64,000 bases of DNA from a virus. Shown here piece by piece: positions 14,107 to 53,507 of the stretch; the first letter of the stretch is position 1; every line of letters begins with the position of its first letter. The notes below the pieces were generated by a model, which had not been told where the DNA came from, made no database searches, and worked only from the letters and a program-made list of their open reading frames with translations. The position numbers and the translations under genes were made by a program. The stretch lies in IMG/VR virus record IMGVR_UViG_3300027969_000050, positions 1 to 64,000 of that record; one strand, 5' to 3'.

Positions 14107-15570
14107 TTATGCCGTAGTCGCAGTGTTTAGAGTCGCAGTTGCAGTTGCGAGATTGATTGAGAACCCAACGTTAATGTAGTTGAGTGGGAATGAAGGCCTG
14201 TACGAGAACCTAACATCCATTTGAGTTGGATCCGTTGTTACAAGACGCGCCTGTACGTCTTGGAAGTCAACAATTTCACCAGCAGTTTTAAGAAGCTGCA
14301 AGACGCCGATAACGGCTGCCTGTACAGTTGCGCCAGCAAGGTCATCGGCAATCGTTTGGCCAATGATCTGAGTTTCAAGAGTCTGACGAATCGAAGAAAT
14401 CATACGACCCTTGGCACGAACAACCGAAAGCTCTGATTCGTATGTTGGAGTAAGGTCAAGCGTCTTGGAATGGCGCACCTGATTGACACCTAGTTGAGGA
14501 TGTACAACAAGGAGGCCGCTTCCGGCATCGTCGTCTAGGTCTGGGCGGGTGCGGAAGTCAATATTTGAGACGCCAATAACGCTTTGACGGGTGATGGATC
14601 GTGACGGTAGTCGCGCAGAAAGCATTCCGCCAATTGCCGCTGCTAGGTACTGTCCGCCTAGAGTGTAGACCGTGTTTGCATCAACGGAGCGCGTAAATTT
14701 CGCAGGAGAAACCATCGCTGCTTGTTTTGCGTATGTTGCTCCGTTTGAGCTAGACCTAATATTTCCAGCGGTGGTGCGTAGGGCCGTAATTCCCGCCGCA
14801 AAATCAAGCGCCGTTCCGTCTTGACCTAAGACAGCAAAGACTTGATTTTGGTAAGTTTCATTGGCAGTACGCTGGTAATTTTGAACGGCAGTAAAGATAT
14901 CTGCTTGGTTTGTGCTGTCCGAAACTACTGGAACAACGATTGAAACGTCTTCTATGCCATGAAGCGTATTCAGCGCCGTTTGCCAAGCGGTAGACGTGGA
15001 CTTATTTGCCGTAGAGATTGGCAATGCGTATACGGAGCGCGCACCGTTTTCAAAAGCAAACTTGATACCTAAGGTAAGCGGAGTAAGAACCGTAGTGTTT
15101 GAGGTGTTAAAAGGAAGTCCGTAAATTTCTTCAGCGTCTGAATAGTTGGTTACAAGACGAGCGGAATAGTAATTTGAAGGGACATAAGTGATTGTAATCG
15201 TGACGTTGTACGTTGCTTCACTTGTGGAACCCCTTACAAGCTTGATCTGAGGAGTGGTGCCACTTGACCAAGTAAGAACGTACTTGAGAGCGCTTCCCGT
15301 GCTAGGAATGATCTGAGTCACGCCGCTGGCATCAACGTATGAAACCGAGGTGACGGCAACTCCTGTCGCGCTGGCAGGAATTTCTGAGATAGCGCTATCG
15401 ACTCCGCTTGTGCTAGAGGCTAAGGTCCTTGTTACGGTCTTTGCCGCGTAGCCCTGAGCAGCCTCTCCCACAATTACGATTGTTCCTGCTGGAGTCAAAC
15501 CGGGCAAAACAGACTGCGTGGTTAACTCTGAGACGCTTACTCCGGGGGAAATATAATTATTAATTGCCAT
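14107..15570 (-). CDS. Contractile tail sheath protein
   Basis: 487 aa. N terminus NNYISPGVSVSELTTQSVLP is the classic sheath signature (PGVxVxE), followed by TIVIVGEAAQG. The C-terminal half contains the conserved core (NIDFRTRPDLDDDAG, LLVVHPQLGVNQVRHSKTLD, RRMISSIRQTLE-like segment RMISSIRQTLETQIIGQ) and ends in an extended strand used for mesh contacts. Length is within the family range. It surrounds the tube and contracts to drive injection. Upstream of the start lies an A/T-rich leader; the tube gene follows three bases downstream. Confidence 0.93.
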   Translation of the reverse strand: MAINNYISPGVSVSELTTQSVLPGLTPAGTIVIVGEAAQGYAAKTVTRTLASSTSGVDSAISEIPASATGVAVTSVSYVDASGVTQIIPSTGSALKYVLTWSSGTTPQIKLVRGSTSEATYNVTITITYVPSNYYSARLVTNYSDAEEIYGLPFNTSNTTVLTPLTLGIKFAFENGARSVYALPISTANKSTSTAWQTALNTLHGIEDVSIVVPVVSDSTNQADIFTAVQNYQRTANETYQNQVFAVLGQDGTALDFAAGITALRTTAGNIRSSSNGATYAKQAAMVSPAKFTRSVDANTVYTLGGQYLAAAIGGMLSARLPSRSITRQSVIGVSNIDFRTRPDLDDDAGSGLLVVHPQLGVNQVRHSKTLDLTPTYESELSVVRAKGRMISSIRQTLETQIIGQTIADDLAGATVQAAVIGVLQLLKTAGEIVDFQDVQARLVTTDPTQMDVRFSYRPSFPLNYINVGFSINLATATATLNTATTA

Positions 15571-21742: not shown

Positions 21743-22846
21743 TTAGAGTAGGCCCGACACATCCAGCTTGCTGACAGCGGAGGGCTGACTGCCCGTGCTG
21801 ACCGTCTGCTTAAGGATACGCGAGAGACCGCGTGGGTTAAGCACAAGCATACCTACCAGCTCGTCCATTACCCAGCCCTTGTAGAACTGCTCGACCTGAT
21901 GGTTCTCCTCCACGTCGAGAGAGTACATGACCGGGAACACACCGACGAACTCTGGCTCAGCCGTGAGGAAGATCTCGCCCTGTGGGACAATGATCGACTT
22001 CTGGATCTGGAACTCACCGAAGGAAGTGATCTTCCCACCGCTGAATACCTCGTCCTTGAACTTAAAGCCAGTGACGTTCAGGTCCCAGTTGTATAGGTCC
22101 CGAATGTCAGCCGGATGTGCGAGAACGCGCTTGGCTTCTAGCTGGTTAATCTCAATCTGAGTAACCGCGTTGTAGAAGTCAGCAGGCTCTAGCGGGTTGC
22201 CAGCACCAATGACGACGCTCTGCTCATTGGCGTAAGTGCCAACACCAGCAGCGTTGCCAACCTGCGTGCCGCCCGTAGGGGCTGCACCGATGACGGCATT
22301 GCTGTTTGCGCTACCGTTAGCCGAGTTACGGCTTCCGGCTAGGTCCGAAATGGCACCCTCAAGCAGAACGACCAAACGTGCGTCTTCCTGCTTCTGGATT
22401 GCCTGACGAGTCTCGTCCTGAGCGTACTCAACTGCGTTTACCCGCAGGTAGTAAAGATCTTCCTTGCGAATACGCGGGAAAGATGCGATACGGAAAAGCT
22501 GCGGGAAGGCCTGCTTACCCTCGAAAGGAGTAATTTTGACCTCTGAGTCAGTCTGGTTCAGGACATATGCCCGACCCAGATCGTCCAGAATGTCGTAAGG
22601 CATGAGTGGACCGCGCTCCAACGTATCCTCAACGAGGACGTTGCGCACGATACCTTCGTACCGAAGACGAATCTGAATAGGGCCAATCATGCCCTGACCA
22701 ATACGACGCATTGCGTTCTGCCTGTCGGCAAGAATCGCCTCAAGACGCTTGGCCTTAGCCTGCTTTGTTAGCTTGGGAAGATCCTTCAGCTTTGTTTCAT
22801 AATCAGCCGAAGCAACTGCCTGTCGCGCTGTTAGTTCTAATGACAT
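21743..22846 (-). CDS. Major capsid protein
   Basis: 367 aa from the ATG at 22846, which has AAGGATAA upstream; in-frame codons further upstream lie over the neighbouring gene. Follows the protease and decoration-type genes and precedes a strong terminator, the expected place. Seen: an N-terminal helical segment (ADYETKLKDLPKLTKQAKAK), a long E-loop-like region (RLRYEGIVRNVLVEDTLERG), GRAYVLNQTDSEVKITPFEG, helix ALEYAQDE-like AVEYAQDETRQAIQKQED, and ADIRDLYNWDLNVTGFKFKD. The C-terminal half (EIFLTAEPEFVGVFPVMYSL) is typical of HK97-fold capsids in long-genome phages. It forms the shell. Confidence 0.85.
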   Translation of the reverse strand: MSLELTARQAVASADYETKLKDLPKLTKQAKAKRLEAILADRQNAMRRIGQGMIGPIQIRLRYEGIVRNVLVEDTLERGPLMPYDILDDLGRAYVLNQTDSEVKITPFEGKQAFPQLFRIASFPRIRKEDLYYLRVNAVEYAQDETRQAIQKQEDARLVVLLEGAISDLAGSRNSANGSANSNAVIGAAPTGGTQVGNAAGVGTYANEQSVVIGAGNPLEPADFYNAVTQIEINQLEAKRVLAHPADIRDLYNWDLNVTGFKFKDEVFSGGKITSFGEFQIQKSIIVPQGEIFLTAEPEFVGVFPVMYSLDVEENHQVEQFYKGWVMDELVGMLVLNPRGLSRILKQTVSTGSQPSAVSKLDVSGLL

Positions 22847-22859
22847 TATATCTTTATCC

Positions 22860-23516
22860 TTAGATCTTGAGGTCGATGACAATGCGATTTGCCGAAGGAA
22901 CATCAAGAAGATGCGCCACGACAGTACGCTTGTTGCCGGTAGTACCAACGACGTTGACGCCACTCTGGACGTCTGCGGCCGATTCAGCAATCGCGTTGGA
23001 GGTGTAGCCAGCCGGAAGCGTTAAGACTCCGTTTGTGCCACAAACCAACGGCACAGGCGAACTAGCACCCGTGAGAATTGCTGCGGTAATAGTTGAGGTG
23101 TCGAAAGCCGGGGCCAGAAGCTCGAAAACCGAGTCCGGGCCGCGCCAAACGCCAACCTTATTTTCGTTGCCAAGTTCATCAAGGTCGCCACCAACAAAGT
23201 TGGCAAGAAGACCAAAAGGAACCTCACGCTTGACGCCGGTAGACGGGTTGCCGCCTGTACCAACAGCGACAACGTCGCCGCCTACAGTAGGAACACGAAC
23301 TAGAACGGTGCCGGGAATGAGGCCACCCTTGATGAGCTTAGCCGCTGCCGTGCGTGTGAACGGAGATGAATCCGAACTGCCCGGGGCGGTGAAGCTTGCA
23401 CCAGTACCAATCGAGCTGTGCAGTTCACATGCAAACGGGGTAGCCTGCGTTTGTGCGTAGGCCGCCCGAATGGTTCGCTTCTGCAAAGCATTCGATACAT
23501 TTTTAACTCGAAGCAT
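22860..23516 (-). CDS. Probable capsid decoration protein
   Basis: 218 aa, Gly/Thr/Val-rich and beta-dominated. Seen: ELHSSIGTGASFTAPGSS, LIPGTVLVRVPTVGGDVVAV, EVPFGLLANFVGGDLDEL, KVGVWRGPDSVFELLAPAFD. This order (short lead, then VPFGLLANF..GGDLDELG, then V.VWRG..S) is like head-stabilisation proteins found beside capsid genes. It is 13 bases upstream of the capsid gene with an AAGGATC before its ATG. The decoration role is inferred from build and place. Confidence 0.68.
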   Translation of the reverse strand: MLRVKNVSNALQKRTIRAAYAQTQATPFACELHSSIGTGASFTAPGSSDSSPFTRTAAAKLIKGGLIPGTVLVRVPTVGGDVVAVGTGGNPSTGVKREVPFGLLANFVGGDLDELGNENKVGVWRGPDSVFELLAPAFDTSTITAAILTGASSPVPLVCGTNGVLTLPAGYTSNAIAESAADVQSGVNVVGTTGNKRTVVAHLLDVPSANRIVIDLKI

Positions 23517-23608: not shown

Positions 23609-26131
23609 CTACATGAAAAGCGCGGAATCTGTTTCCGGCTTCTCGGTAGCGGATTTGTCTGTGCTTGCAGAGCGAGTCATAGACGGCAACCTCTTAGCGG
23701 TCTTGGCCTGACGCCCTAAACCAGCGAGTTTTACCCGCTCGGCGTAGCGCAACGAAGCCTTAACAGCCTCAGTTGACTCTTTCTCTAACTCAGCGATACG
23801 CGCATACTTACGCTCCGTCTCAGTCAGGCCAAGCTCAACTTCGAGATCGGCTAGCTTGAACGCGGAAAGAAGATGCGTTGACTTCTTAACTCCCTCTTCC
23901 GAAGAAGGGAAAGGTTCATTGGTTACGGCTGGTTGCTGCTTTGTTACACCGTTACCATTCATGCCCGAAAAAGTATCCGTCGGGCCAGAGTTGTTATTTG
24001 GCGAAGTGACATGATCTAGCACATCAACTCGTTCCTGAGCATTGCCCATCGGATCTGATGGCTGAGTACCGCTCTTCGCGCTACCGCCAGCAAGTCCGCC
24101 GTCGTCCTTCGGGAATGCTGAGTCGTCGTGAGACTTCTTAACACCCTCGTCGGCAGCCGGGAATGGTTCGCTGCTTACAGGATCGTGCTGATTTTCATTT
24201 GGGAATGTCTGAGTCGGGATAGCTTCAATATTGCCACCCTCCTGCTCCACATCGACCCGCGCAGCAGGATCGTCATTCCAAGCCGGGGCAACCCCGGTTG
24301 AATCAACGGCGACCTGAGCGTCAGCCTGAGAAGATTGCTCGTTTGTTCCCTCATAAACCGCGCCCACGCCATCGACATTAGTCGTAGCGTCGGCTGCGCT
24401 GGCAGAAGCATTGTCCATCGATACCCCATCAGCTACTCGTTCCATTTTATCTCCTGCTTGTTTACGCCCAAGAGCCTCAATAAATTCTTTGGCTGTTAGG
24501 ACAGATGATGTGACCGGCGTAGTTTGATCCGAAACAACTGTTTCTTCTGTTGGTTCGTTGGTCCCCAAACCGTTAGGATTCACAATTGGCTTTTCGCCAT
24601 TGTTAATCTCTCCGGCTACGCGGGGGTCAAGCTCAATTTTCCATGCCATATCGTTTTTTACTGAAGCGAGGGGTCGATTATTAAAGGGTTCATCGCCGGT
24701 AAGGATGTCCTCTAGTTGAACTTCTTCTCGATCCTCCATAGCTTTCGATAGGTCTGGATTGTTAAACCCTTGTGGGGGTTCTGTGTTTCCACAAATTTTG
24801 CATGTCTGCTCACCGTTCATTTGCGCATCGCAGACAGGACACTTGTCTTTTTCGTCTCCCTGATCTTGAATTTCGTTACATACGCTGCAAGGCTCGTCCT
24901 TGTCGTCCTTGGTACTTCCACAAATCTCGCAGATTGCCTCTTGGCGAAGAGTGTCCACCTCGGCAGGAAGGCGCTCCTGCTCTCCCTGAGGCTTGGGATT
25001 GTCAGCTTGCTTGACAGAAGACTGAGGTCGCATTGGCTCGTCGTCGCCCATGTTCCAGTAGCGCTCTTCGTGTTCAAGGACATCTTCACGGTCAGGACCG
25101 CGATCAGAGTTGTCGAGATCCACATGACCACACTCAGGGCAATCAACATAGGACGCCATATAATCATCGCGCTCGCGCTCACCGGGATGATCATTGTGGT
25201 GAGGCACATGACTTAACCCGACTCGGTCCTCTTCAACTTCTTTGCCACAATTGGGACAATTCACAGGATTGTGTTCGGGGACATACTCAGAGCGAGCCAA
25301 GTCTCCCCAGTCAGCGCTTTTCGTATTTGCTGTACGAACCTCACGAAGAAGAGCGGTTTCGTCAGCCGGGTCAAAGACTGCTGAGATCTCAAAGAATTTA
25401 ATTCCGTAGCAGTCCTCGTAGGCTTTGCGTGAAGTGCGATGACCCTTGTCGTCGTAATGATCGAACTGGGCGCCCTTCATCTTCACATGCTGGCAGAACT
25501 CGTCAGGTGAATAAGCGGCGTTCTTACAGATGTTGCAAACCGTGTAGTCAACGTCGCATCCCATCGAGAAACCGTCAATACCCTTACCCGGGTCCTTGCT
25601 TCCCTCAATGATCGCCTTAGCGAGCTTTGGAAAGGACTCAGCGTCCACCTCAAGAAGAAGCTCCACCCAAGTAGGAGGAGTGTGGTTGTCAGGAGCGCTT
25701 GCGTAGTACGAATCAAGCTCGGCGGCGGTTTTGTGATCCTCAACATGAAGCTTGGCATCAACAATGACTCCACGCGCCCTAGAAGGGTCGGAGTTGTTGT
25801 GGTCGATGAAGATTGGCTTGCCAAGGAACGTAGAGAATCCGTACTCGTCGCCCTTCTTGGCCTCAACCGTAAAACCACCTTCGATGCCTGATTGCTTATA
25901 GCGATCAAAGATGTCTGGGTTGCCAGCAAGCTCAATCGCTGGCCAACCATCATGGTTTTTATTTACACGAGACGAGATGGCCCGGATACGAGCATAAAGA
26001 TATCCGTCTTCTGTGCGGTATTCATCAAAATCAGCTAGACGAGAAAGCGAAGCCGATTTGACTTGCTTATTCGAACCCTTGGTGTCAAGGATGTCCGTGA
26101 TTTCAACAGATGCGAACTTAGTAAAAGCCAT
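23609..26131 (-). CDS. Prohead maturation protease fused to a long acidic zinc-ribbon region
   Basis: 840 aa. Residues 1-280 look like a capsid maturation protease of the HK97/S78 type: GKPIFIDHNNSD (catalytic His), GIDGFSMGCDV (Ser) and KFFEISAVFDPADE (acidic third residue). Residues 195-460 carry many Cys pairs (CNICKN, CPNCGKE, CPECGH, CEICGS, CSVCNE, CPVCDA, CKICGN), probably several zinc ribbons. The rest is acidic and disordered with a C-terminal Lys/Ala-rich helix (ERKYARIAELEKESTEAVKA) that could act as scaffold. The protease would process scaffold and capsid proteins in the prohead. The length is far above the usual 200-300 aa. Confidence 0.78.
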   Translation of the reverse strand: MAFTKFASVEITDILDTKGSNKQVKSASLSRLADFDEYRTEDGYLYARIRAISSRVNKNHDGWPAIELAGNPDIFDRYKQSGIEGGFTVEAKKGDEYGFSTFLGKPIFIDHNNSDPSRARGVIVDAKLHVEDHKTAAELDSYYASAPDNHTPPTWVELLLEVDAESFPKLAKAIIEGSKDPGKGIDGFSMGCDVDYTVCNICKNAAYSPDEFCQHVKMKGAQFDHYDDKGHRTSRKAYEDCYGIKFFEISAVFDPADETALLREVRTANTKSADWGDLARSEYVPEHNPVNCPNCGKEVEEDRVGLSHVPHHNDHPGERERDDYMASYVDCPECGHVDLDNSDRGPDREDVLEHEERYWNMGDDEPMRPQSSVKQADNPKPQGEQERLPAEVDTLRQEAICEICGSTKDDKDEPCSVCNEIQDQGDEKDKCPVCDAQMNGEQTCKICGNTEPPQGFNNPDLSKAMEDREEVQLEDILTGDEPFNNRPLASVKNDMAWKIELDPRVAGEINNGEKPIVNPNGLGTNEPTEETVVSDQTTPVTSSVLTAKEFIEALGRKQAGDKMERVADGVSMDNASASAADATTNVDGVGAVYEGTNEQSSQADAQVAVDSTGVAPAWNDDPAARVDVEQEGGNIEAIPTQTFPNENQHDPVSSEPFPAADEGVKKSHDDSAFPKDDGGLAGGSAKSGTQPSDPMGNAQERVDVLDHVTSPNNNSGPTDTFSGMNGNGVTKQQPAVTNEPFPSSEEGVKKSTHLLSAFKLADLEVELGLTETERKYARIAELEKESTEAVKASLRYAERVKLAGLGRQAKTAKRLPSMTRSASTDKSATEKPETDSALFM

Positions 26132-37652: not shown

Positions 37653-39053
<1,401 letters not shown>

Positions 39054-39100: not shown

Positions 39101-40636
39101 CTATCCGGTTACAACTACGCGATAAGTATTGCCATCGTTATTACCGAAGGTAATGTTGACGGCGGTAGAGCTTGAAACCGAAATGTCTGGGAATACTTGA
39201 TTAACGGGAGTTCCAGAAGAGGTGTCATACACCTGAACCGTTACGTCGGTTGTGCCAAGATTGTGAGTGAAAGAAATAGGGCTTGTCGTGTTGCAGGTAA
39301 TCGCGCCAGCGATCTTCGTAGCAAGAACCGGACCGGCTCCCGAAGTGCTGCCGGACTGAGCGGCAAGGTTGGTCCTTGCGCCAGAAGCGGTGCTTGATCC
39401 CGTACCACCATCAACAACAGCGATGTCGGTGCCGTTCCAAACACCGGTTCCAATAGTACCGAGTGTCGTGATCGAGCTTTGACCGATGTAGCTAGTTGAA
39501 ATGTCAATTGCGTCGGCACTGACCGAAATTCGGTTTAATGTGCCAACTGCATCAATTGTGTTGCCGGTCTTTGTAAGACCATCACCGGCTGTAATGCTTG
39601 AGGCGCCAGTAAACTGTGTAAACGACAGGCTGGTAGTGTCAACGATGATTGGGTCGTCGGTAACTAGTACCCAACCGCTGTCGCCATAAACAGAACCTTC
39701 AGTTACCCATACTGCAAGACCGGCGGTTACTTCGGCGTCAGCATCTGCATCGGCTGAACGCGACCATGTGCTTGCGGAGGCAACGTATACGCCATTTTCC
39801 GAAGCTGTGGTTTGATTCTTAACTAAGACGCGATTTCCGGCGACAACAGATACCCCGTCAATGGTTTGAGCGCCAGAGAGGGTAATGTTGGAAGTCGTTG
39901 CGGCTCGTACCGAAGGCTTCCAGTCAATGCCTACAACAGCGGCGTCAACATACGCTTTGGTCGCGGCGTCAGTGTCTGACGTTGGAGCGGCTAGGTTGGT
40001 AATCTTTTGGCTGTTAAGGCTTACGCTTGCGCTTGGCGTACCAATTGAGCTTAATGTTACGGCTCCGGTTCCGGAGGTAACAAGCTTGCCGACCTGAATG
40101 CTGCCAGCAAGATCACCGTTTGTAATTGAACTGGCAAGGCTAAGCTTGGAGTATGCGATAGCCGCATTGGTAGCGACGTCGCTGTTCTGAATGCTGGTTG
40201 AAAGATTAAGCTTGCTGTAGGCAATGGCGGCTGATACGCCGATGTCTGCGTTTACGATGTTGCCCGTAAGGTTCAGCTTGGAGTAAGCAATTGAAGCACT
40301 TGCCGAAATGTCAGCATTGACGACACCACCTGTAAGACTGAGCTTGGAGTACGCAATGGCGGCGCTGGACGAAACATCAGCGTTAACGATGCTTCCTGAA
40401 AGACTTAGCTTCGAATAGGCGATTGCGGCGTCTGCCGCAACGTCACCATTTGAAATAGTGCCTGAGAGGACCTTTTCCCAGCCAGCTCCGTTATAAATAT
40501 AAAGCTTGTTAGCAGTCGTAGACTCAAAGTAAATTTGGCCTTTAACCGGACTGGCCGGAGCGGTTCCCGTATTTTGAATACGAGCATTGAGAAGCTCGTT
40601 CTTTGATAGGTCTACTGCTGAGAGAAATTTAGGCAT
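39101..40636 (-). CDS. Long tail fibre with tandem 22-residue repeats
   Basis: 511 aa. N terminus LSAVDLSKNELLNARIQNTG then KGQIYFESTTANKLYIYNGA is a typical fibre attachment motif. Residues 58-185 hold six copies of a 22-residue unit (NADVSSSAAIAYSKLSLTG and variants), likely a regular coiled or beta-helical shaft. The next part has SQKITNLAAPTSDTDAATKA, a common phage fibre motif, then beta domains and a C-terminal domain FTHNLGTTDVTVQVYDTSSG related to the one in the next gene. Probably trimeric. The repeats are visible in DNA at about 40080-40460. Confidence 0.82.
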   Translation of the reverse strand: MPKFLSAVDLSKNELLNARIQNTGTAPASPVKGQIYFESTTANKLYIYNGAGWEKVLSGTISNGDVAADAAIAYSKLSLSGSIVNADVSSSAAIAYSKLSLTGGVVNADISASASIAYSKLNLTGNIVNADIGVSAAIAYSKLNLSTSIQNSDVATNAAIAYSKLSLASSITNGDLAGSIQVGKLVTSGTGAVTLSSIGTPSASVSLNSQKITNLAAPTSDTDAATKAYVDAAVVGIDWKPSVRAATTSNITLSGAQTIDGVSVVAGNRVLVKNQTTASENGVYVASASTWSRSADADADAEVTAGLAVWVTEGSVYGDSGWVLVTDDPIIVDTTSLSFTQFTGASSITAGDGLTKTGNTIDAVGTLNRISVSADAIDISTSYIGQSSITTLGTIGTGVWNGTDIAVVDGGTGSSTASGARTNLAAQSGSTSGAGPVLATKIAGAITCNTTSPISFTHNLGTTDVTVQVYDTSSGTPVNQVFPDISVSSSTAVNITFGNNDGNTYRVVVTG

Positions 40637-41425: not shown

Positions 41426-44236
41426 CTATGTCCTGCCAACATCTAAGTTTAATTTCCAAAGCTCTTCAGGGGATAATTTCAAATCTCTTCTCAGGTGCTT
41501 CATGATCGAATCGCCGTCTTGTCCCTCAACTACGTCTCCTGCGTCTGAAAGATAATAGGGACGCTGGCCTTGGAAGGAGGAACCCTTCCAGCCGGGAGGA
41601 GTTTGAAGCTGGTCAATTTCTTTCCGAAGGGCCTTCTTGAACATTTTCCAGTCAAGCTCCCCGCCACGAAAATCATCTTGGTGCTTGTCGAGGTACTCAG
41701 TAATTTTCTTTTTCGGCGTCTTGTTGAGGACGGCATAGGCGCCAAGCTGCTTAATCTGCGATAGCGTTCCGCTGATTGGCTTGAGTTTATTCCATGACTC
41801 AATAAAGGTCGGAAAAATATTTGCTGTCCTGAACGGAACGGTGTTTCTGCTGTGTTGAGATGCTTCATTAGCGTTCCAAAGATCCTCGACGACCTTTCCG
41901 GCATCCTCACTGTTAGCCCACCATTCTTCAGGGCCTTCGATCTGGTTAGGGCGACCACGATCTAGAACGTGGTTTCCTTCTTCGTCGGCTTCGTACTCAA
42001 TTTTCTTAGACCAGTCTCGGGTCTCTGTTGGGTCCTTCTTTGCCCAATCAACTTGGTCATGCGGCGTAGGGTTCATTGGCTTAAGCGCCGTATGGTCCTG
42101 ATGCGACCCGACTCCGGTGCGCTTTGCGTCCCATAGCGCCCATTGAGCCTGACCCAAAGGCATCGATCCGTAGCCCATATTGTCAGTTCTAGCACGAAGC
42201 ATGCGCTCGTACTTAAAATAATCCCGGTTTGAAAGATCTGACTGCTTGCCCCCAAGCATTGAAATCATGTGGGTATCGATTGTTGCAAGCTCCGAGGTCA
42301 TTGGGCTTAGTAGAAGCCAAGCAAACGAAGCAACCTTCGGGCCAACGCCCGGAAGGTTCAAATGCATTACCTCGGTCCTAAAAATATGGCCCTTTCCGCC
42401 AGAATTGGCGTCTTCGACCGCCGCATCGTAAAGCGAATCAATATGTCGGGAGATGGCCGCAATATTTTTTGTTTGCTGGATGAGCCAGCCACCGTAAAGC
42501 TCATCGTCCCCAGTTTCCGCCGGAAGAGGGTCCTCGTCGTTCAATAAATTTTTCTGGCCCTTGTTCACCTGCTTGAACTTTGGCTTCTTGGCCGCAATTA
42601 AGCCCAGTTGCTCATGCTCGACATCATGCTTCTCGTTCTTGGCCTTCATCGAGTCCCGAAGATGGGTTTTGACCAGTGCTGCGGCAGCGGCAGTTATCTG
42701 GTCAGCGCTCTTGCGCTTGTCCTCGGCCTTATCGGACTCCTCGCCCTCAAGCATTCTTTCGTAGTGATAAAGAAGATTATGGACCTCGAGTTCGGTGTTT
42801 TTTCGAACTTCCGATGGATCCACGTCTGGATGCTGGGCAATTTTTAATCCGATGAGATCTTTGAGTTCTTCTCGGTACGGGATATGGACATCGGCAAAAT
42901 CAGGACCAAACTTGCTTACGTTCCATTTGACCCTCTGGTCGTTTAGAGCCTCGTGATAAACACTTGGGTCGGTTACGTCATACGGAATCTGCATGAGGTG
43001 TTGGTACTGAATGGCGTTCCAGCGCAGATTTTTCATTGGGGAAAGAACCGCTGCTCGCAGGGCGTTTGCGATTGATGCCTTGGCTAGGGATTCGTCCATC
43101 TTGTTCAAGGGCTGGCCCTGAAGCTTCTGAGCTACGTCCTGAATCCCGCCCTCTTTCCCATAATCGAGCGGGTCGCCGTAATGCAGGTAGGCATTCTGGT
43201 CGGCAGGGGCGATTCCGGACTCCCATTGATGGTTAGGGTCGAAAAGCTCCTGACCCTCCTCTGTAATCGTCTTTGAAATAACTGGCGGCCTTGGAAAACC
43301 CTGCTCGTAGTCGTACCAGCCCTCAGGCCAGCCCATTCCCTCTGCCTCGTGCGGAGCTGTCGTGCCTAGATCGAGACCCTGTGCGGGACTTGGCGCGACT
43401 TCTGGCATTGCCATTGGGGCGTAAGAATGCTCAACCGGAACGCCAGTGTGATCAACATCGTTTTCGGCATATTGGGCCTCACCAAGGAACTGGGGAAGTA
43501 AAACAATTTTTTGAGGACCGAAGGACCGGTAATACTGCGAATACGCAGTCTGGGCGATGCATTCTGAGAAAAGCGCCTGCTGGGCAAGCGGGGAGAGCAG
43601 CGGAAAATGCGCGGCACAGGCTTGGTTCTCTCCAACCCAGCCAAAATCGCCTCCCGAAACACAATGCCCAAGCACATCATGAACCACGCGAAAAGCGACA
43701 TTCTCATCTACGGACCAAATTGGATGTTCGCTATTGGCACGGCTAACTTTAAATTTTCTTTTGTTGTGGACGTCCTCGCACATCTCCTGAGGATTGGCAT
43801 ACGGCTCAGGGTCATCAACTATTTCGATGTCTATCTGCTGTGCAAGAACCTCCATACGGCGAACGCTGTCGTCGGCAAGTTCTTTCCAAGCCGGACCAGC
43901 TTTTGGATCATAGGCTGGAGCCGTTGCATAGGCCTCAGCAATCTCTTGAATCTGATCGGTCCAATTCGACTTCCACATTCCAACGTGCCTCTGGGCAGCA
44001 GAGCGGACATGCTCGCGCCGCATAATGGCAATCAAAAGAGATCCAAGGGCAGTAGCCTGATCGCGGCCAGTCTTAGTTACTTTCTTGCCGCTTGGATTGG
44101 TTGCCGAGGCATGGTATTCGCCCTTTTTGAACTCAACCTTTCCTACCGTCCAGCCCCTAGCGTGGATCTCGTTCATTAGATCCCTTACAGGCGTAGTTAT
44201 GCCCCTGAAGGCTGACGTGAGATCAATCGTGCGCAT
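41426..44236 (-). CDS. Large multidomain protein with HDxxGH and HhH-GPD glycosylase-like domains
   Basis: 936 aa from ATG 44236. Residues 1-75 are an N-terminal domain (GWTVGKVEFKKGEYHASATN). Residues 170-255 contain FRVVHDVLGHCVSGGDFGW, GENQACAAHF and FSECIAQTAYSQYYRSFG, a motif set (HDxxGH, GExxA) I recall from large phage proteins and which may bind metal. Residues 600-720 contain HLNLPGVGPKVASFAWLLL and ATIDTHM, the helix-hairpin-helix, Lys and Asp signature of OGG1/EndoIII-type DNA glycosylases. The rest is charged and helical. Likely a virion-packaged polyvalent protein; it is far longer than any stand-alone glycosylase. Minus strand, upstream of the fibre genes. Confidence 0.72.
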   Translation of the reverse strand: MRTIDLTSAFRGITTPVRDLMNEIHARGWTVGKVEFKKGEYHASATNPSGKKVTKTGRDQATALGSLLIAIMRREHVRSAAQRHVGMWKSNWTDQIQEIAEAYATAPAYDPKAGPAWKELADDSVRRMEVLAQQIDIEIVDDPEPYANPQEMCEDVHNKRKFKVSRANSEHPIWSVDENVAFRVVHDVLGHCVSGGDFGWVGENQACAAHFPLLSPLAQQALFSECIAQTAYSQYYRSFGPQKIVLLPQFLGEAQYAENDVDHTGVPVEHSYAPMAMPEVAPSPAQGLDLGTTAPHEAEGMGWPEGWYDYEQGFPRPPVISKTITEEGQELFDPNHQWESGIAPADQNAYLHYGDPLDYGKEGGIQDVAQKLQGQPLNKMDESLAKASIANALRAAVLSPMKNLRWNAIQYQHLMQIPYDVTDPSVYHEALNDQRVKWNVSKFGPDFADVHIPYREELKDLIGLKIAQHPDVDPSEVRKNTELEVHNLLYHYERMLEGEESDKAEDKRKSADQITAAAAALVKTHLRDSMKAKNEKHDVEHEQLGLIAAKKPKFKQVNKGQKNLLNDEDPLPAETGDDELYGGWLIQQTKNIAAISRHIDSLYDAAVEDANSGGKGHIFRTEVMHLNLPGVGPKVASFAWLLLSPMTSELATIDTHMISMLGGKQSDLSNRDYFKYERMLRARTDNMGYGSMPLGQAQWALWDAKRTGVGSHQDHTALKPMNPTPHDQVDWAKKDPTETRDWSKKIEYEADEEGNHVLDRGRPNQIEGPEEWWANSEDAGKVVEDLWNANEASQHSRNTVPFRTANIFPTFIESWNKLKPISGTLSQIKQLGAYAVLNKTPKKKITEYLDKHQDDFRGGELDWKMFKKALRKEIDQLQTPPGWKGSSFQGQRPYYLSDAGDVVEGQDGDSIMKHLRRDLKLSPEELWKLNLDVGRT

Positions 44237-44271: not shown

Positions 44272-44688
44272 CTACATAAGGTCAAGCACACGCAATTCAA
44301 AATCATACGCATCATCTTCAGATTCCTCAATGCTCAACGGGTTGATTGTCAGCGTTCCATATTTTTTCTTTCCTCGATTGAACTGACTGATGTGTCGAAG
44401 TTCATGGGCAAACAGCCTTATGATGTCGCGCTCTCCACATTCAAACCCCAGAGACATTTGCACCCACCCATCGGGGTGATAGCGGAAATTATTTCTTCGG
44501 ACGGAAAAGTTGTCCGGATGCGCCCAACCATTGAAATCAGAATGCGACGGAGAGAGCCGCGTTTCGACAAAGAGGCCCCGTACCCTCAGATCACGATCAA
44601 CCTCTCTTACAACGGCCTTTACGTCGTTTAGAAGCAACCTTAGATCCGGGAACTCACAGTCAATCCCAGCAGAGCAAGATACTTGCAC
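44272..44688 (-). CDS. Small HExxH metallopeptidase-like protein
   Basis: 138 aa. GTG start at 44688 with GGGGGGAAA just upstream. Zinc site: FAHELRHISQF (HExxH), and an acidic cluster SEDDAYDFELRVL 22 residues later that could give the third ligand, as in minimal gluzincins. Earlier part is beta (DLRVRGLFVETRLSP, PDGWVQMSLGFECGERD). Small peptidases of this type occur in phages and toxin-antitoxin systems; the substrate is unknown. Confidence 0.7.
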   Translation of the reverse strand: MQVSCSAGIDCEFPDLRLLLNDVKAVVREVDRDLRVRGLFVETRLSPSHSDFNGWAHPDNFSVRRNNFRYHPDGWVQMSLGFECGERDIIRLFAHELRHISQFNRGKKKYGTLTINPLSIEESEDDAYDFELRVLDLM

Positions 44689-45126: not shown

Positions 45127-45555
45127 TTACAGGGCGTATTCAGGGTGCTTAGAGGGCCAGAAGTAGGGCATCGGAGAGTCGTCCCAGAGTTCTCCGTACC
45201 AGTCAGAATCCTTCACTATAAGATTTGAACGGTGCGATGCGTGTACACGATCATCGCCCCACCACGCAGGGAATGACTCGTCGTCAAACTTGAAAGCTTC
45301 AATGCGACCTCGTAGATCGGTGTTGTCATTGCCACCTTGAGCGACCCACTCGTCGCACATGATTAGACCGTAGAGACGCAAGGCGCCGCCGTAACCGCGC
45401 CACATATGAACGGCTGGGTGACTCTGCCAGCCGTAAGTGTCGTCTGTGATCGCACGAAGAACCTGAAACGCCTCGATTCGCTGCTTGTTGAGGCGACGAC
45501 GATCTAAGGACGAAGCACACTTGTAGATATCTGGATACGGAACGAATGTCTGCAT
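45127..45555 (-). CDS. MSMEG_6728-type protein, possibly related to pyrimidine dimer glycosylases
   Basis: 142 aa. MQTFVPYPDIYKCASSLDRR, RLNKQRIEAFQVLRAI, GWQSHPAVHMWRGYGGALRL and HASHRSNLIVKD are the conserved blocks of a family found in actinobacteria, their phages and cyanophages. Some members are annotated as pyrimidine dimer DNA glycosylase-like, but the activity is not certain. If so it would act in repair of UV damage. It is expressed from a leaderless promoter six bases upstream. Confidence 0.72.
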   Translation of the reverse strand: MQTFVPYPDIYKCASSLDRRRLNKQRIEAFQVLRAITDDTYGWQSHPAVHMWRGYGGALRLYGLIMCDEWVAQGGNDNTDLRGRIEAFKFDDESFPAWWGDDRVHASHRSNLIVKDSDWYGELWDDSPMPYFWPSKHPEYAL

Positions 45556-46325: not shown

Positions 46326-46637
46326 ATGGCGGCCCCAGAACCACTAGAAATAATTTTAAAACACATCGAGCAGCTCCGAGAGGATGTTCGTGAAGGCTTT
46401 GAACGGATTGACGGTCGGCTTACCAAGCTTGAAGAACGAGTAGGCCGAACTGAAAAATGGCAAGCCGAAAAAGACGCCGTTGAGAAGGCCTTAGATGATC
46501 AGTCAGACGAGAGAAACGCAAACGCGCATATTACTTTAAACAGCCGTCAAGTAGTGATTGCAACGATAGGCGGAGTGCTTGCCCTCGCAATGGTAATCAT
46601 TAGCGTATTACAAGTCTTTAACGTCATCGGTACTTAG
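46326..46637 (+). CDS. Coiled-coil protein with C-terminal membrane span (XhlA/holin-like)
   Basis: 103 aa. A long coiled coil (LEIILKHIEQLREDVREGFE, RIDGRLTKLEERVGRTEKW) is followed by one membrane helix QVVIATIGGVLALAMVIISV near the C terminus. This is the layout of XhlA-type holin partners. ATG 46326 or the adjacent 46323 may be used. It is convergent with the helicase gene and overlaps its 3' end by 30 bases. No endolysin sits next to it, so a lysis role is tentative. Confidence 0.68.
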   Translation: MAAPEPLEIILKHIEQLREDVREGFERIDGRLTKLEERVGRTEKWQAEKDAVEKALDDQSDERNANAHITLNSRQVVIATIGGVLALAMVIISVLQVFNVIGT

Positions 46638-48641
46638 CATTCCGCGCATCAGATCGCGCAGAATACTTGTTTGAGCGGGGTTGTCTCCGCCGTCCATAAT
46701 TGCGCTAGTGACCGTGCGCTTGCTCTCAATCAATTCCACAATGCGCTCGTCGATTGTTCCCTGAGCAATCAGGTACCAAGCCGTAACCGAATCTGACTGA
46801 CCGATACGGTGGCAGCGGTCCTCCGCCTGATCGTGTTCCGCTGGCGTCCAACCAACCTCTAAGAAAGCAACATTTGATGCAGCCGTAAGGGTGATGCCGG
46901 TGTTTGCAGCCTTGAGAGAGCAGACGATAATACGGCAGGACTCGTCATTTTGAAACTTATCAACCTGTTCTTGCTTTTCCTTGGCGTCCATTCCGCCAGA
47001 AATGCTTGCCATGTTGGACTTTGCAAGGCGCTTGTCCTCACGAACGCTTTTGGCAACGTCACGATGATGAACAAAGAGAACCAGCTTCTCCGACTCGATA
47101 AAGTCAGCGGCCCATTCGATAGCGGCCTCAACCTTTCCTCTTGCCGCGATCTGCTTAAGGGTCTGAATTTGGACGAGGACTTCTGCCTGCGACGCCCTTG
47201 CCGCAGCGGTGTTAGCGCGCTGGTCACGGAGCTTTTTCTTTTCTTCCTTGGAGAGACCGGCCTCTTCGGCTTCAATCTCGGCCTTCTGCTCCGCACTCTT
47301 GCGTAGATATCCGATTACGTCGTCTTCTGCGGCTCGGTACTCAGAAAAGTTGTCGATCTCCATTGGGATAATCGCCCGCTGCTTGGCGGGAAGCTCTTTT
47401 AGAACGTCGCTCTTAAGACGCCGAACAAAGCACGAGCCGCGCAGCTTTTCGTTTAGCTCGTCAAGATGGGTGGCTCCGTCCATGTTCCAACCGAAGCGGT
47501 CCTTGTAAGCGCCACAGTAACGAAGAAAGAACTTGAAGCCGCCGAACTCTTTTTCTCGTCCCAGAATCTTTAGCTGCGGAGCAAGTTCTTTTGGTCGATT
47601 GAGGACAGAGGTTCCGGTTAGGTTCAAGACAAGCCCATCGTCCGGAATAAGGTTTGCGATTGCAAGATCGGCCTGAGTCCTTTTAGCCTTCGGGTTCTTG
47701 AGATTGTGGGACTCATCGTTTACGAGAGACTTGGGAGAGAAGGCGATTAGTTCTTCCTTCCAAGAGTCCAAGATGTCGTAGTTGATTACTACAACGTCGC
47801 AGGCGTCTGGGATCCTAAGCGCCTTTTTGCCTGAGAGTACGTCCACGACTCGATTTGGACAGGCGGTCTTCCATGCCCTCTGCCAGCCGTACTTCATGTT
47901 TCCTTGACAGACAATGACTACCGGGAAGGCATCGGCGGCGTGAATTGAAGCAATAGCCTGAAAGGTCTTGCCAAGCCCCTGCTCGTCAGCGATGAATGTG
48001 CGGCGGGTTTTCAAAACGTATTCGACCCCGGCCTTCTGGAATGGATAAAGCTCGACGCCGAAATCCTTGATCTCAAAGTCGGACTCCGCTTCGTCTTGAC
48101 GGGAGAGGATGGTTAGCTCGTCGTGTTTTGCCTCTTCGATGACGGCGCCATCAAGGAGAGTGGAAAGATGAGCGGTCACGTCCTTGCCGACCTTTACGTT
48201 GAACCGAGTGATGAAATTTGCCGTGCCGTCAGCGGCTTTCGGAACTCCGGGTACCGTCCATGTCTTGCTGGTCGGGTTGAAGTTGCGTCCGGGGATGCTC
48301 TTCACTGACTCCAAGCAATTATAGAAGTCATCGGTTCCGGGTTCAAAGCTGATTTCAAAGTCGCCCTGATTGAGCCGAACTTTGATTAGCGGCTCGTCGG
48401 CTACTTTGTCGAGTTCCTTGCTGGCCTCGTCCGTGAGAGAGAAGCCGTGATTCTCAGCGAGAGAACGGACAGGGGCTGCGTTGCCAGCGGATACAGAGGC
48501 GGTCCAGAACTTATTGCTGGGGTTCCACTTGCGCCTCGGAAGAGATTTGATCGAAGCAACGACTTCACTGTCGTATTCGCACTCGATTACGAGATCGGAA
48601 CCGTCAAATGAGATTTTGCGTTCCTTCTGCTTGGTAGCCAT
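46608..48641 (-). CDS. SNF2-family helicase with HARP-like repeats (SMARCAL1-type)
   Basis: 677 aa. N-terminal residues 1-160 hold two short HARP-like repeats (KWNPSNKFWTASV and NFNPTSKTWTVPG). Helicase core: Walker A DEQGLGKT near 220, VINYDILDSW, VNDESHNLKN (DESH in place of DEAH), NLTGTSVLNRP, then LFVHHRDVAKSV, CSLKAANTGITLTAASNV and motif VI DQAEDRCHRIGQ. All motifs are intact, so it should hydrolyse ATP and translocate on DNA. SMARCAL1-like enzymes anneal single strands and remodel forks; the phage protein may restart replication. Leaderless promoter six bases upstream. Confidence 0.9.
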   Translation of the reverse strand: MATKQKERKISFDGSDLVIECEYDSEVVASIKSLPRRKWNPSNKFWTASVSAGNAAPVRSLAENHGFSLTDEASKELDKVADEPLIKVRLNQGDFEISFEPGTDDFYNCLESVKSIPGRNFNPTSKTWTVPGVPKAADGTANFITRFNVKVGKDVTAHLSTLLDGAVIEEAKHDELTILSRQDEAESDFEIKDFGVELYPFQKAGVEYVLKTRRTFIADEQGLGKTFQAIASIHAADAFPVVIVCQGNMKYGWQRAWKTACPNRVVDVLSGKKALRIPDACDVVVINYDILDSWKEELIAFSPKSLVNDESHNLKNPKAKRTQADLAIANLIPDDGLVLNLTGTSVLNRPKELAPQLKILGREKEFGGFKFFLRYCGAYKDRFGWNMDGATHLDELNEKLRGSCFVRRLKSDVLKELPAKQRAIIPMEIDNFSEYRAAEDDVIGYLRKSAEQKAEIEAEEAGLSKEEKKKLRDQRANTAAARASQAEVLVQIQTLKQIAARGKVEAAIEWAADFIESEKLVLFVHHRDVAKSVREDKRLAKSNMASISGGMDAKEKQEQVDKFQNDESCRIIVCSLKAANTGITLTAASNVAFLEVGWTPAEHDQAEDRCHRIGQSDSVTAWYLIAQGTIDERIVELIESKRTVTSAIMDGGDNPAQTSILRDLMRGMLSTDDVKDL

Positions 48642-52004: not shown

Positions 52005-53507
52005 CTACCGGTTCGCCAAATTGATGTTGGCGATGTGGGCCGTCGTTACGTCAGGCGGCTGTTGAGGATTCGGCGCATAGCGTAAAATCCAGTCCCGCGA
52101 TGGAATTTCTTTTTTGATCTCTTGGAAGGAAATCGCATCATCCGCGCTCAGTCCGTAATCGGTGCGGGTCAAGCCACGCTCGATTTCTTCCGCCGCGCCG
52201 GGAAATTCGTATTGATACGGAAGCCGGTGAACCCCGTCAGTATCGTAGGCATACTGGTCGTCATGGGTAAAGAAATGCCACGGCGTTACCGGACTCTCGA
52301 CGTATTCGCCATTGACTACATCGCGGGACGGCACGTCTACATAATGCATTCCAATACTAAGCTCAGGGTAGGCTTGCTGATGTGCAATAGCCCATTCCAA
52401 GCAACTTCCGAACATCCCATTCTCGGCTTCGTCCTCTGACGGCACCCATCGAGCGCCCAGCACATAGGAAGATTCACGAGGAGAAAGCTTCGCTAGGGGC
52501 TTATCCCAAGCGCCAGCCTTTTCTTGAATGCTTAGGTCGCCCACAACTGGCAGTCCAATGTCGGACGGATGCATGTATTGAGGAGGCGTTGGATTTCCTT
52601 GGTAGTCTTGGTAGGGTCCCACATATTGGAACCTATGACCATTAGGCTTATACGGCTTGCGAGTAGATCGAATAACGAAAACAGGAAGGGAGGTCAGGCC
52701 CAACTGTTCCGCAATTCCGACTCGGTGATTCCCTTCTGAAACGTGTGCCTCTCCAGTTAGTTCATTGAACTCAACCACGACCGGTTCCTGAACACCATTC
52801 TGGGCGATACTGTCCTTTAGTTCATCTATGGCGACACTGTCCTTCAGTGCATCTACGTCCTCTCCGAAACGGTCGTACTCGAGAAGTTCTGTCAGCAATT
52901 GAGTGGGAACGTATCCGGTAAATTCCTCCAAAAAAGCAGTCTTTTTTTGGGAAGCCTGAATTCCCGGCTTCATCTCCCTGATGCTGGACTGGTCAATTGG
53001 GTCGCTGGCCCAGTCGGCTCCTTCTCCCCAAGACAAGCACTTACAGCTTTCGTAAAGCTCGTCACATTCGGGGCAGACATGCGGGTCCTTGTCTAGGCGA
53101 CCAAACTTTGCCGTTCCAAGAAAAGAAGTCAAGGCGTCAGAGATCTGCTTCTGATCCTTTTCCGAACAGTTCCACCCTCGGGCCGTCGGAATGTTTACGT
53201 CGCCAGTGACCCGAGAAACGTGACCCCGATGAATTGGCCCAATGAGATCCCCGTCAATGGCTTGCATTATTTGTGCGTGCAAGCTTCCCGGGGGCGCTAA
53301 AAATATTTTTCTTGCGCCCATGTCAACGAGGAAAGGCGTCGTTTCGGGCTGAAAATTTTCATCATCGTCAACGTCAACCCATTGGATCTCGTATTTTGGC
53401 TCGTTAGGAGCGACAGAGTTTGGAAAGTTTCCGGGCTGAATAGACTTGCCGGAGTCCCCGTCCTCGCCCCAGTCCGAATCATAAGCATCAGAAAGACGCC
53501 GGTACAT
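52005..53507 (-). CDS. Large protein with ParB/sulfiredoxin-like domain and possible Cys/His peptidase-like domain
   Basis: 500 aa. Residues 130-165 hold a small Cys cluster (HVCPECDELYESCKCLSWG). Residues 225-285 are a ParB-like nuclease/CTPase-type fold: IDELKDSIAQNGVQEPVVVE then SEGNHRVGIAEQLGLTSLPV (GNHR for the usual GxxR motif). Residues 350-430 contain FGSCLEWAIAHQ and WHFFTHDDQYAYDTDGVH, a Cys-His(-Asp) order as in papain-like or transglutaminase-like folds. The mix of unrelated domains in a minus-strand, late-type gene downstream of fibre genes suggests a polyvalent, virion-delivered protein. Confidence 0.68.
   Translation of the reverse strand: MYRRLSDAYDSDWGEDGDSGKSIQPGNFPNSVAPNEPKYEIQWVDVDDDENFQPETTPFLVDMGARKIFLAPPGSLHAQIMQAIDGDLIGPIHRGHVSRVTGDVNIPTARGWNCSEKDQKQISDALTSFLGTAKFGRLDKDPHVCPECDELYESCKCLSWGEGADWASDPIDQSSIREMKPGIQASQKKTAFLEEFTGYVPTQLLTELLEYDRFGEDVDALKDSVAIDELKDSIAQNGVQEPVVVEFNELTGEAHVSEGNHRVGIAEQLGLTSLPVFVIRSTRKPYKPNGHRFQYVGPYQDYQGNPTPPQYMHPSDIGLPVVGDLSIQEKAGAWDKPLAKLSPRESSYVLGARWVPSEDEAENGMFGSCLEWAIAHQQAYPELSIGMHYVDVPSRDVVNGEYVESPVTPWHFFTHDDQYAYDTDGVHRLPYQYEFPGAAEEIERGLTRTDYGLSADDAISFQEIKKEIPSRDWILRYAPNPQQPPDVTTAHIANINLANR

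What the first reader, a model, noticed from the sequence alone, without database searches (positions are those of the whole stretch)
41426..44236. DNA glycosylase-like HhH-GPD fold and an HDxxGH domain inside a 936-aa late protein
HLNLPGVGPKVASFAWLLL plus ATIDTHM keep the helix-hairpin-helix, the position of the catalytic Lys and the catalytic Asp of OGG1/EndoIII enzymes. An N-terminal set (VVHDVLGHCVSGG, GENQACAAHF) suggests a second, metal-type domain. The gene lies on the late strand before the fibre genes, and the protein is long and modular, like polyvalent proteins that are injected with the genome. A glycosylase delivered in this way could repair incoming DNA or attack modified host DNA.
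Basis: partly seen in the sequence, partly recalled or inferred. Interest (0 to 1): 0.7.

Follow-up and report, generated by a model that had tools for sequence, protein, structure and literature searches.

The report
Phage protein with DNA-glycosylase-like domain
A large soil-phage protein joins a DNA-glycosylase-like domain to a widespread, undescribed phage domain whose predicted fold matches no solved structure, and the two recur together in distantly related phages, which suggests a conserved early-infection tool, though no activity has been shown.

Summary
The ORF at 41429-44236 (-) encodes 936 aa. Residues ~94-259 form a confident AlphaFold2 domain (pLDDT 89.5, core about 98) with invariant H186, H191, E203, H210 and E225 across 61 phage sequences. 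It has no Pfam family and no PDB fold match, but is common in phages, both alone and inside large "polyvalent" proteins (with GNAT, ART, zeta kinase, MuF). Residues ~378-736 carry an HhH-GPD (EndoIII/OGG1-type) signature: LSP, LPGVGPK (K634), TIDTH (D654), QW..W. Profile-profile comparison with 33 cellular HhH-GPD proteins scores 47.7, against at most 22.3 for 150 column shuffles, with K and D in register. PF00730 itself does not match, and the AlphaFold2 model of this half failed (pLDDT 59), so the fold is not structurally proven. The same two domains, with DUF7178 (which I place with HhH-GPD) in the second position, are neighbours in Bxz1-like mycobacteriophages and Gordonia phage Skog, and fused in unrelated phages. 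Late or virion-module placement is supported by context only. Delivery into the host and base-excision activity remain inferences. Best reading: a polyvalent-type effector with a new domain pairing, probably acting on DNA at the start of infection.

The parts
41429..44236 (-). Gene for the 936-aa two-domain protein (ATG start; stop at 41426-41428)
   Evidence: four full-length relatives at 37-44% identity
43460..43957 (-). HDxxGH domain, residues 94-259; invariant H186, H191, E203, H210, E225
   Evidence: phrog_3170 E 3e-21; AF2 pLDDT 89.5, pTM 0.84; 61-sequence conservation; no PDB fold match; 24 BFVD fold matches at E<=1e-3
42029..43105 (-). HhH-GPD (DNA glycosylase)-like region, residues about 378-736, with a helical insertion between residues about 410 and 580
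   Evidence: hhalign to cellular HhH-GPD alignment prob 86.8, P 4e-6, score 47.7 vs shuffled max 22.3; to DUF7178 prob 92
43031..43045 (-). LSPMK element (398-402), counterpart of LSPQK in DUF7178 and LSAQAT in EndoIII
   Evidence: alignments; register with EndoIII (DUF7178 vs HhH-GPD)
42335..42355 (-). Helix-hairpin-helix LPGVGPK (628-634), K634 at the EndoIII K120 / OGG1 K249 position
   Evidence: K kept in all 5 relatives and in 27 of 29 DUF7178 sequences
42269..42283 (-). TIDTH (652-656), D654 at the catalytic Asp position (EndoIII D138)
   Evidence: D kept in all 5 relatives and in 29 of 29 DUF7178 sequences
43967..44236 (-). N-terminal extension, residues 1-90, conserved in the full-length relatives, function unknown
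   Evidence: three-way alignment
44272..44688 (-). Neighbour upstream: small protein with HELRH, weak metallopeptidase match (DUF6782 E 0.006); homologue beside the same gene in the Solirubrobacter provirus (45% identity)

Best explanation
It is a polyvalent-type phage effector with two enzyme-like modules on one chain. The N-terminal HDxxGH module is an all-helical domain of unknown fold class whose three consecutive helices carry H-x4-H, E-x6-H and E, most likely a metal site of a hydrolase or oxygenase (inferred). The C-terminal module is a divergent HhH-GPD domain that probably flips out a base and, with K634 and D654, excises it and nicks the abasic site like a bifunctional glycosylase/AP lyase (inferred from conserved residues). 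The protein is probably made with the virion genes, packaged, and delivered with the genome, so that it acts on host or incoming DNA in the first minutes of infection (inferred from context). Shown here: homology of both modules, conservation of the key residues, recurrent pairing of the two modules, and structural-gene context. Not shown: activity, substrate, packaging, delivery.
For: Both modules are conserved in five full-length proteins. HhH-GPD match well above shuffled controls with K and D in register; DUF7178 independently links to both. L007's protein has Pfam Ogg-HhH as its best, sub-threshold hit over the same region (E 0.015). Pairing: 16 of 50 HDxxGH-bearing records have DUF7178, 13 of them within about 3 kb or in the same ORF, where about 2 would be expected; same-ORF fusions in L029, L082/L083 and L094. 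Polyvalent partners: three GNAT domains (L011) and a weak ART match (L065), zeta kinase in L038 and L094, MuF, ART and NAT annotations among BFVD fold matches. Virion-gene context: Bxz1-like gp104/105 among head genes, Skog 165/166 after tail genes, Solirubrobacter provirus near the head protease. Iyer et al. 2017 (PMC5512222) describe polyvalent proteins as encoded with virion components and likely injected.
Against: AF2 of the C-terminal region was poor (pLDDT 59) and matched nothing in the PDB. PF00730 does not hit. No PDB sequence match for either half. No proteomics or expression data. Divergent solo HDxxGH-like proteins (phrog_7806) sit in the early region of T7-like phages, so delivery in the virion is not universal for the domain. 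The pairing statistic treats related records as independent.
Confidence: 0.5

Rival explanations
1. A base-excision repair enzyme that protects the phage genome: the domain removes damaged bases from phage DNA during or after infection, alongside the neighbouring pyrimidine-dimer glycosylase gene.
For: A Pyr_excise (T4 endonuclease V-like) gene lies about 0.9 kb upstream on the same strand (45127-45555, E 1.6e-20); K and D conserved.
Against: It does not explain the recurrent HDxxGH partner, the association of that partner with ART, GNAT and zeta-kinase domains, or placement among virion genes in other phages.
Confidence: 0.2
2. A catalytically inactive HhH-GPD relative used for DNA binding or base reading inside the virion (packaging, organisation or ejection), with a structural role for both domains.
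For: Helical, highly divergent domain with insertions; structural-gene context; HhH modules bind DNA without catalysis in many proteins (established knowledge).
Against: The lysine is kept in 27/29 and the Asp in 29/29 divergent DUF7178 sequences, and the five His/Glu of the partner are invariant in 61 sequences, which looks catalytic.
Confidence: 0.2
3. A DNA base-hypermodification enzyme rather than an excision enzyme: the glycosylase-like fold handles a modified base in phage DNA, with the HDxxGH domain as partner chemistry.
For: Both domains look enzymatic and recur as a pair.
Against: The Pfam-scanned proteins from window and genome show no base-modification gene beyond a helicase and a ParB-like protein, but only part of the genome was scanned; placement with virion genes fits poorly.
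Confidence: 0.08

Closest known systems
HhH-GPD superfamily (EndoIII/Nth, MutY, OGG1; Pfam PF00730, PF22175)
   Same: Helix-hairpin-helix LPGVGPK with Lys, then an Asp in TIDTH 20 residues on (18 in EndoIII), LSP element ahead, conserved Q..W after; profile match far above controls
   Different: Below Pfam detection (PF00730); long insertion between first helices and hairpin; no Fe-S cluster cysteines; fused to HDxxGH
DUF7178 (PF23802; phrog_2878, phrog_3842), e.g. Bxz1-like gp104 and Skog gene 165
   Same: SP..W..N, G.K...F, T[IV]DTH, Q...W pattern; neighbour of the HDxxGH gene
   Different: Most DUF7178 hairpins are two residues shorter (GPK without LPGV); separate gene in Bxz1-like phages and Skog; no published function found
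HDxxGH family phrog_3170, divergent phrog_7806 (LKA1 ORF7, phi15 ORF2)
   Same: Same domain: invariant H-x4-H, GE, H and E, and FG.QK end in phrog_3170 type; fold match to the LKA1 protein
   Different: phrog_7806 members are short solo early genes with HDxGH and altered second motif; no glycosylase partner
Polyvalent proteins (Iyer et al. 2017, PMC5512222)
   Same: Long multi-domain phage protein, virion-gene context, relatives with ART, GNAT, zeta kinase, MuF and 2H
   Different: The main text mentions no glycosylase (0 occurrences), and no Pfam LPD matches the HDxxGH domain; the window protein has only two recognised modules

Membership tests
HhH-GPD superfamily | Sequence-profile relation to known members, with hairpin and catalytic Asp in register | tested here: met
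   hhalign score 47.7, prob 86.8, P 4e-6; 150 column shuffles max 22.3; reversed controls P 0.08-0.17
HhH-GPD superfamily | Match to Pfam PF00730 above cut-off | tested here: not met
   no match even at E 10; PF22175 Ogg-HhH sub-threshold in relative L007, E 0.015. A diagnostic threshold rather than a defining property, so I say 'HhH-GPD-like', not 'Pfam member'.
HhH-GPD superfamily | Two-domain all-helical fold | tested here: inconclusive
   AF2 pLDDT 59, no PDB match; a poor model cannot decide
Bifunctional DNA glycosylase/AP lyase | Hairpin Lys plus Asp | tested here: met
   K634, D654; kept in all 5 full-length relatives
Bifunctional DNA glycosylase/AP lyase | Base excision and strand nicking activity | not testable with these tools
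   needs biochemistry
Polyvalent proteins | Several distinct effector-like domains in one phage polypeptide | tested here: met
   two modules here; relatives of the HDxxGH domain with GNAT, ART, zeta kinase, MuF
Polyvalent proteins | Packaged in the virion and injected | not testable with these tools
   only gene context is available
Aromatic amino acid hydroxylase-type 2-His-1-Glu fold (considered for HDxxGH) | Fold match to solved hydroxylases | tested here: not met
   confident model, no PDB match above probability 0.05

The most novel reading that the evidence does not exclude
The HDxxGH domain is a new metalloenzyme fold that works in tandem with an HhH-GPD glycosylase/lyase on the same DNA substrate. 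The pair is a mobile counter-defence or host-takeover module that phages either package in the virion (polyvalent form, adjacent late genes) or, for the HDxxGH part, express as an early gene (T7-like solo form).
Probability: 0.3. Interest if true: 0.82.

Novelty: new variant of a known kind. Interest (0 to 1): 0.6.

Why it matters
Large phage proteins thought to be injected with the genome are a rich source of unknown counter-defence enzymes. This case adds a DNA-glycosylase-type domain to that set and links it, across distantly related phages, with a widespread domain that has no name in Pfam and no solved structural relative. It also gives Bxz1-like mycobacteriophage gp104/gp105 and the early genes of many Pseudomonas T7-like phages a shared, testable hypothesis in easily grown laboratory systems.

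Tried and rejected
Aromatic amino acid hydroxylase idea for the HDxxGH domain (H-E-x-x-G-H plus a later Glu): no fold match in the PDB. Direct Pfam, NCBIfam and PDB sequence searches: no assignment. AF2 of residues 348-736 with 5 sequences: too poor to use, and its Foldseek hits are noise. A twelve-row alignment with DUF7178 misaligned the LSP element, so it was not folded. First scan with the lone protein found no relatives, because the patterns chosen were not conserved. Plasmid search gave only four weak, non-mobilizable records. Papers: none on DUF7178, none giving virion proteomics of Bxz1-like phages. Promoter scan not above chance, so expression timing could not be read from it. No tRNA or Rfam family in the window.

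Full report
CHECK. The ORF at 41429-44236 on the minus strand starts with ATG and encodes 936 aa. The window is part of a 140,266-base virus record.

RELATIVES OF THE WHOLE PROTEIN. Four full-length relatives were found: L006 and L007 (IMG/VR contigs of 168 and 170 kb), L136 (161 kb), and L137/L140, a provirus in Candidatus Solirubrobacter pratensis URHD0082. Identity over the length is 37-44%. All keep G-x-GPK, TID-x-H and LSP-x-K-x-L. The Solirubrobacter form has an extra C-terminal stretch with two H-x-T motifs and a weak match to the anti-CBASS 2H protein Acb1 (E 0.005, below Pfam's cut-off).

THE HDxxGH DOMAIN. Residues 94-259 match phrog_3170, function unknown. A scan with a five-sequence alignment returned more than 580 viral places. 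In a 61-sequence alignment H186, H191, E203, H210 and E225 are invariant, as are Y146, F182, R183 and V185. AlphaFold2 gives pLDDT 89.5, pTM 0.84, with an almost all-helical core near 98. No PDB structure matches (best probability 0.05), while 24 viral models match at E<=1e-3, some annotated with MuF-type head morphogenesis, ART-PolyVal, NAT or LPD domains. No Pfam family covers it. Other large proteins with the domain carry three GNAT domains (L011) or DUF7178 (L029) or zeta kinase (L038). A metal site is the simplest reading of H-x4-H, E-x6-H and E on three successive helices; this is inference.

THE GLYCOSYLASE-LIKE DOMAIN. Pfam HhH-GPD does not hit. A profile of the five window-type sequences aligned to 33 cellular HhH-GPD proteins gives hhalign probability 86.8, P 4e-6, score 47.7, with LPGVGPK over LPGVGRK and TIDTH over VDTH. 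Of 150 column-shuffled versions the best scored 22.3. The phage family DUF7178 (29 sequences) also matches HhH-GPD (score 32.3, shuffled maximum 18.9), aligning LSPQK with LSAQAT and the Asp with the catalytic Asp; the window type matches DUF7178 with score 53.8 (shuffled maximum 22.5). In DUF7178 the hairpin Lys is kept in 27 of 29 and the Asp in 29 of 29. Pfam's own best, sub-threshold hit for relative L007 in this region is 8-oxoguanine DNA glycosylase (E 0.015). The structure test failed: pLDDT 59 with only five sequences, and no PDB match. It therefore neither supports nor refutes.

THE PAIR. In Bxz1-like LinStu, gene 104 is DUF7178 and gene 105 is HDxxGH; in Gordonia phage Skog genes 165 and 166 are the same pair, both labelled glycosylase by the depositors. 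Of 50 records chosen by HDxxGH alone, 16 contain DUF7178, and I counted 13 of these within about 3 kb or in the same ORF, where the length share would give about 2. The binomial P (2e-10) is overstated because some records are related. Same-ORF fusions occur in L029, L082/L083 and L094, and the window type is a further fusion with the more canonical hairpin.

CONTEXT AND TIMING. The gene is on the strand of fibre-like proteins (39101-40636, 37653-39053), major head protein (21743-22990), head protease-like protein (23609-26131) and tail sheath (14107-15570). In the Solirubrobacter provirus the homologue lies about 4.5 kb from the head-protease homologue, which is 79% identical over 196 aa. This fits late expression but does not show it; the promoter scan is at chance level. 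By contrast, divergent solo HDxxGH-like proteins (phrog_7806) lie at the left end of T7-like genomes: 52 of 60 listed records have it in the first 13% of the genome, allowing for reversed records; in phi15 it is ORF2, between sigma70-like promoters and the RNA polymerase gene. Their relation to the window's domain rests on phrog_7806 E 4e-5 and fold matches.

MECHANISM. The most coherent account is an effector for the first stage of infection, supplied in the virion by large phages and, for the HDxxGH part, by early transcription in small ones. The HhH-GPD part would recognise and excise a base and cut the abasic site; the HDxxGH part would do a metal-dependent step. Whether the target is host DNA, incoming DNA or a defence nucleotide is unknown.

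NOVELTY. Polyvalent proteins are known (PMC5512222). The pairing and the HDxxGH family appear undescribed in the sources searched; supplements were not readable and most subscription papers are not held, so absence there is not proof.

Noticed in passing
window 45127-45555 (-): Pyrimidine dimer DNA glycosylase (PF03013, T4 endonuclease V-like), E 1.6e-20, about 0.9 kb upstream of the finding on the same strand.
   Followed up: partly
window 46608-48641 (-): SNF2-type helicase with HARP motif; DNA helicase phrog_62 E 1e-96.
   Followed up: no
window 52005-53507 (-): 500-aa protein with a ParB-like segment at residues 225-280 (sub-threshold in Pfam, several PHROGs).
   Followed up: no
window 23609-26131 (-): 840-aa protein with head-maturation-protease-like N-terminal part and weak rubredoxin-like and Lar-like restriction-alleviation matches after it.
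   Followed up: no
L137 4068-7055 (L140 5068-8055): Solirubrobacter provirus homologue with an extra C-terminal 2H-like region, weak match to anti-CBASS Acb1 (E 0.005).
   Followed up: partly
L002 3402-6531 (Gordonia phage Skog genes 165, 166): Both genes deposited as 'glycosylase'; the HDxxGH one (166) shows no glycosylase signature and the label may have spread from its neighbour.
   Followed up: partly
L179 1329-1820 (Pseudomonas phage phi15 ORF2): Early gene of a T7-like phage in the phrog_7806 family, sitting where T7 carries its first early genes; function unknown.
   Followed up: partly
L176 13034-14533 and L177 2342-5554: The same phage genome carries a B12-type ribonucleotide reductase part and a bacterial-type DNA polymerase III alpha with PHP domain.
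   Followed up: no
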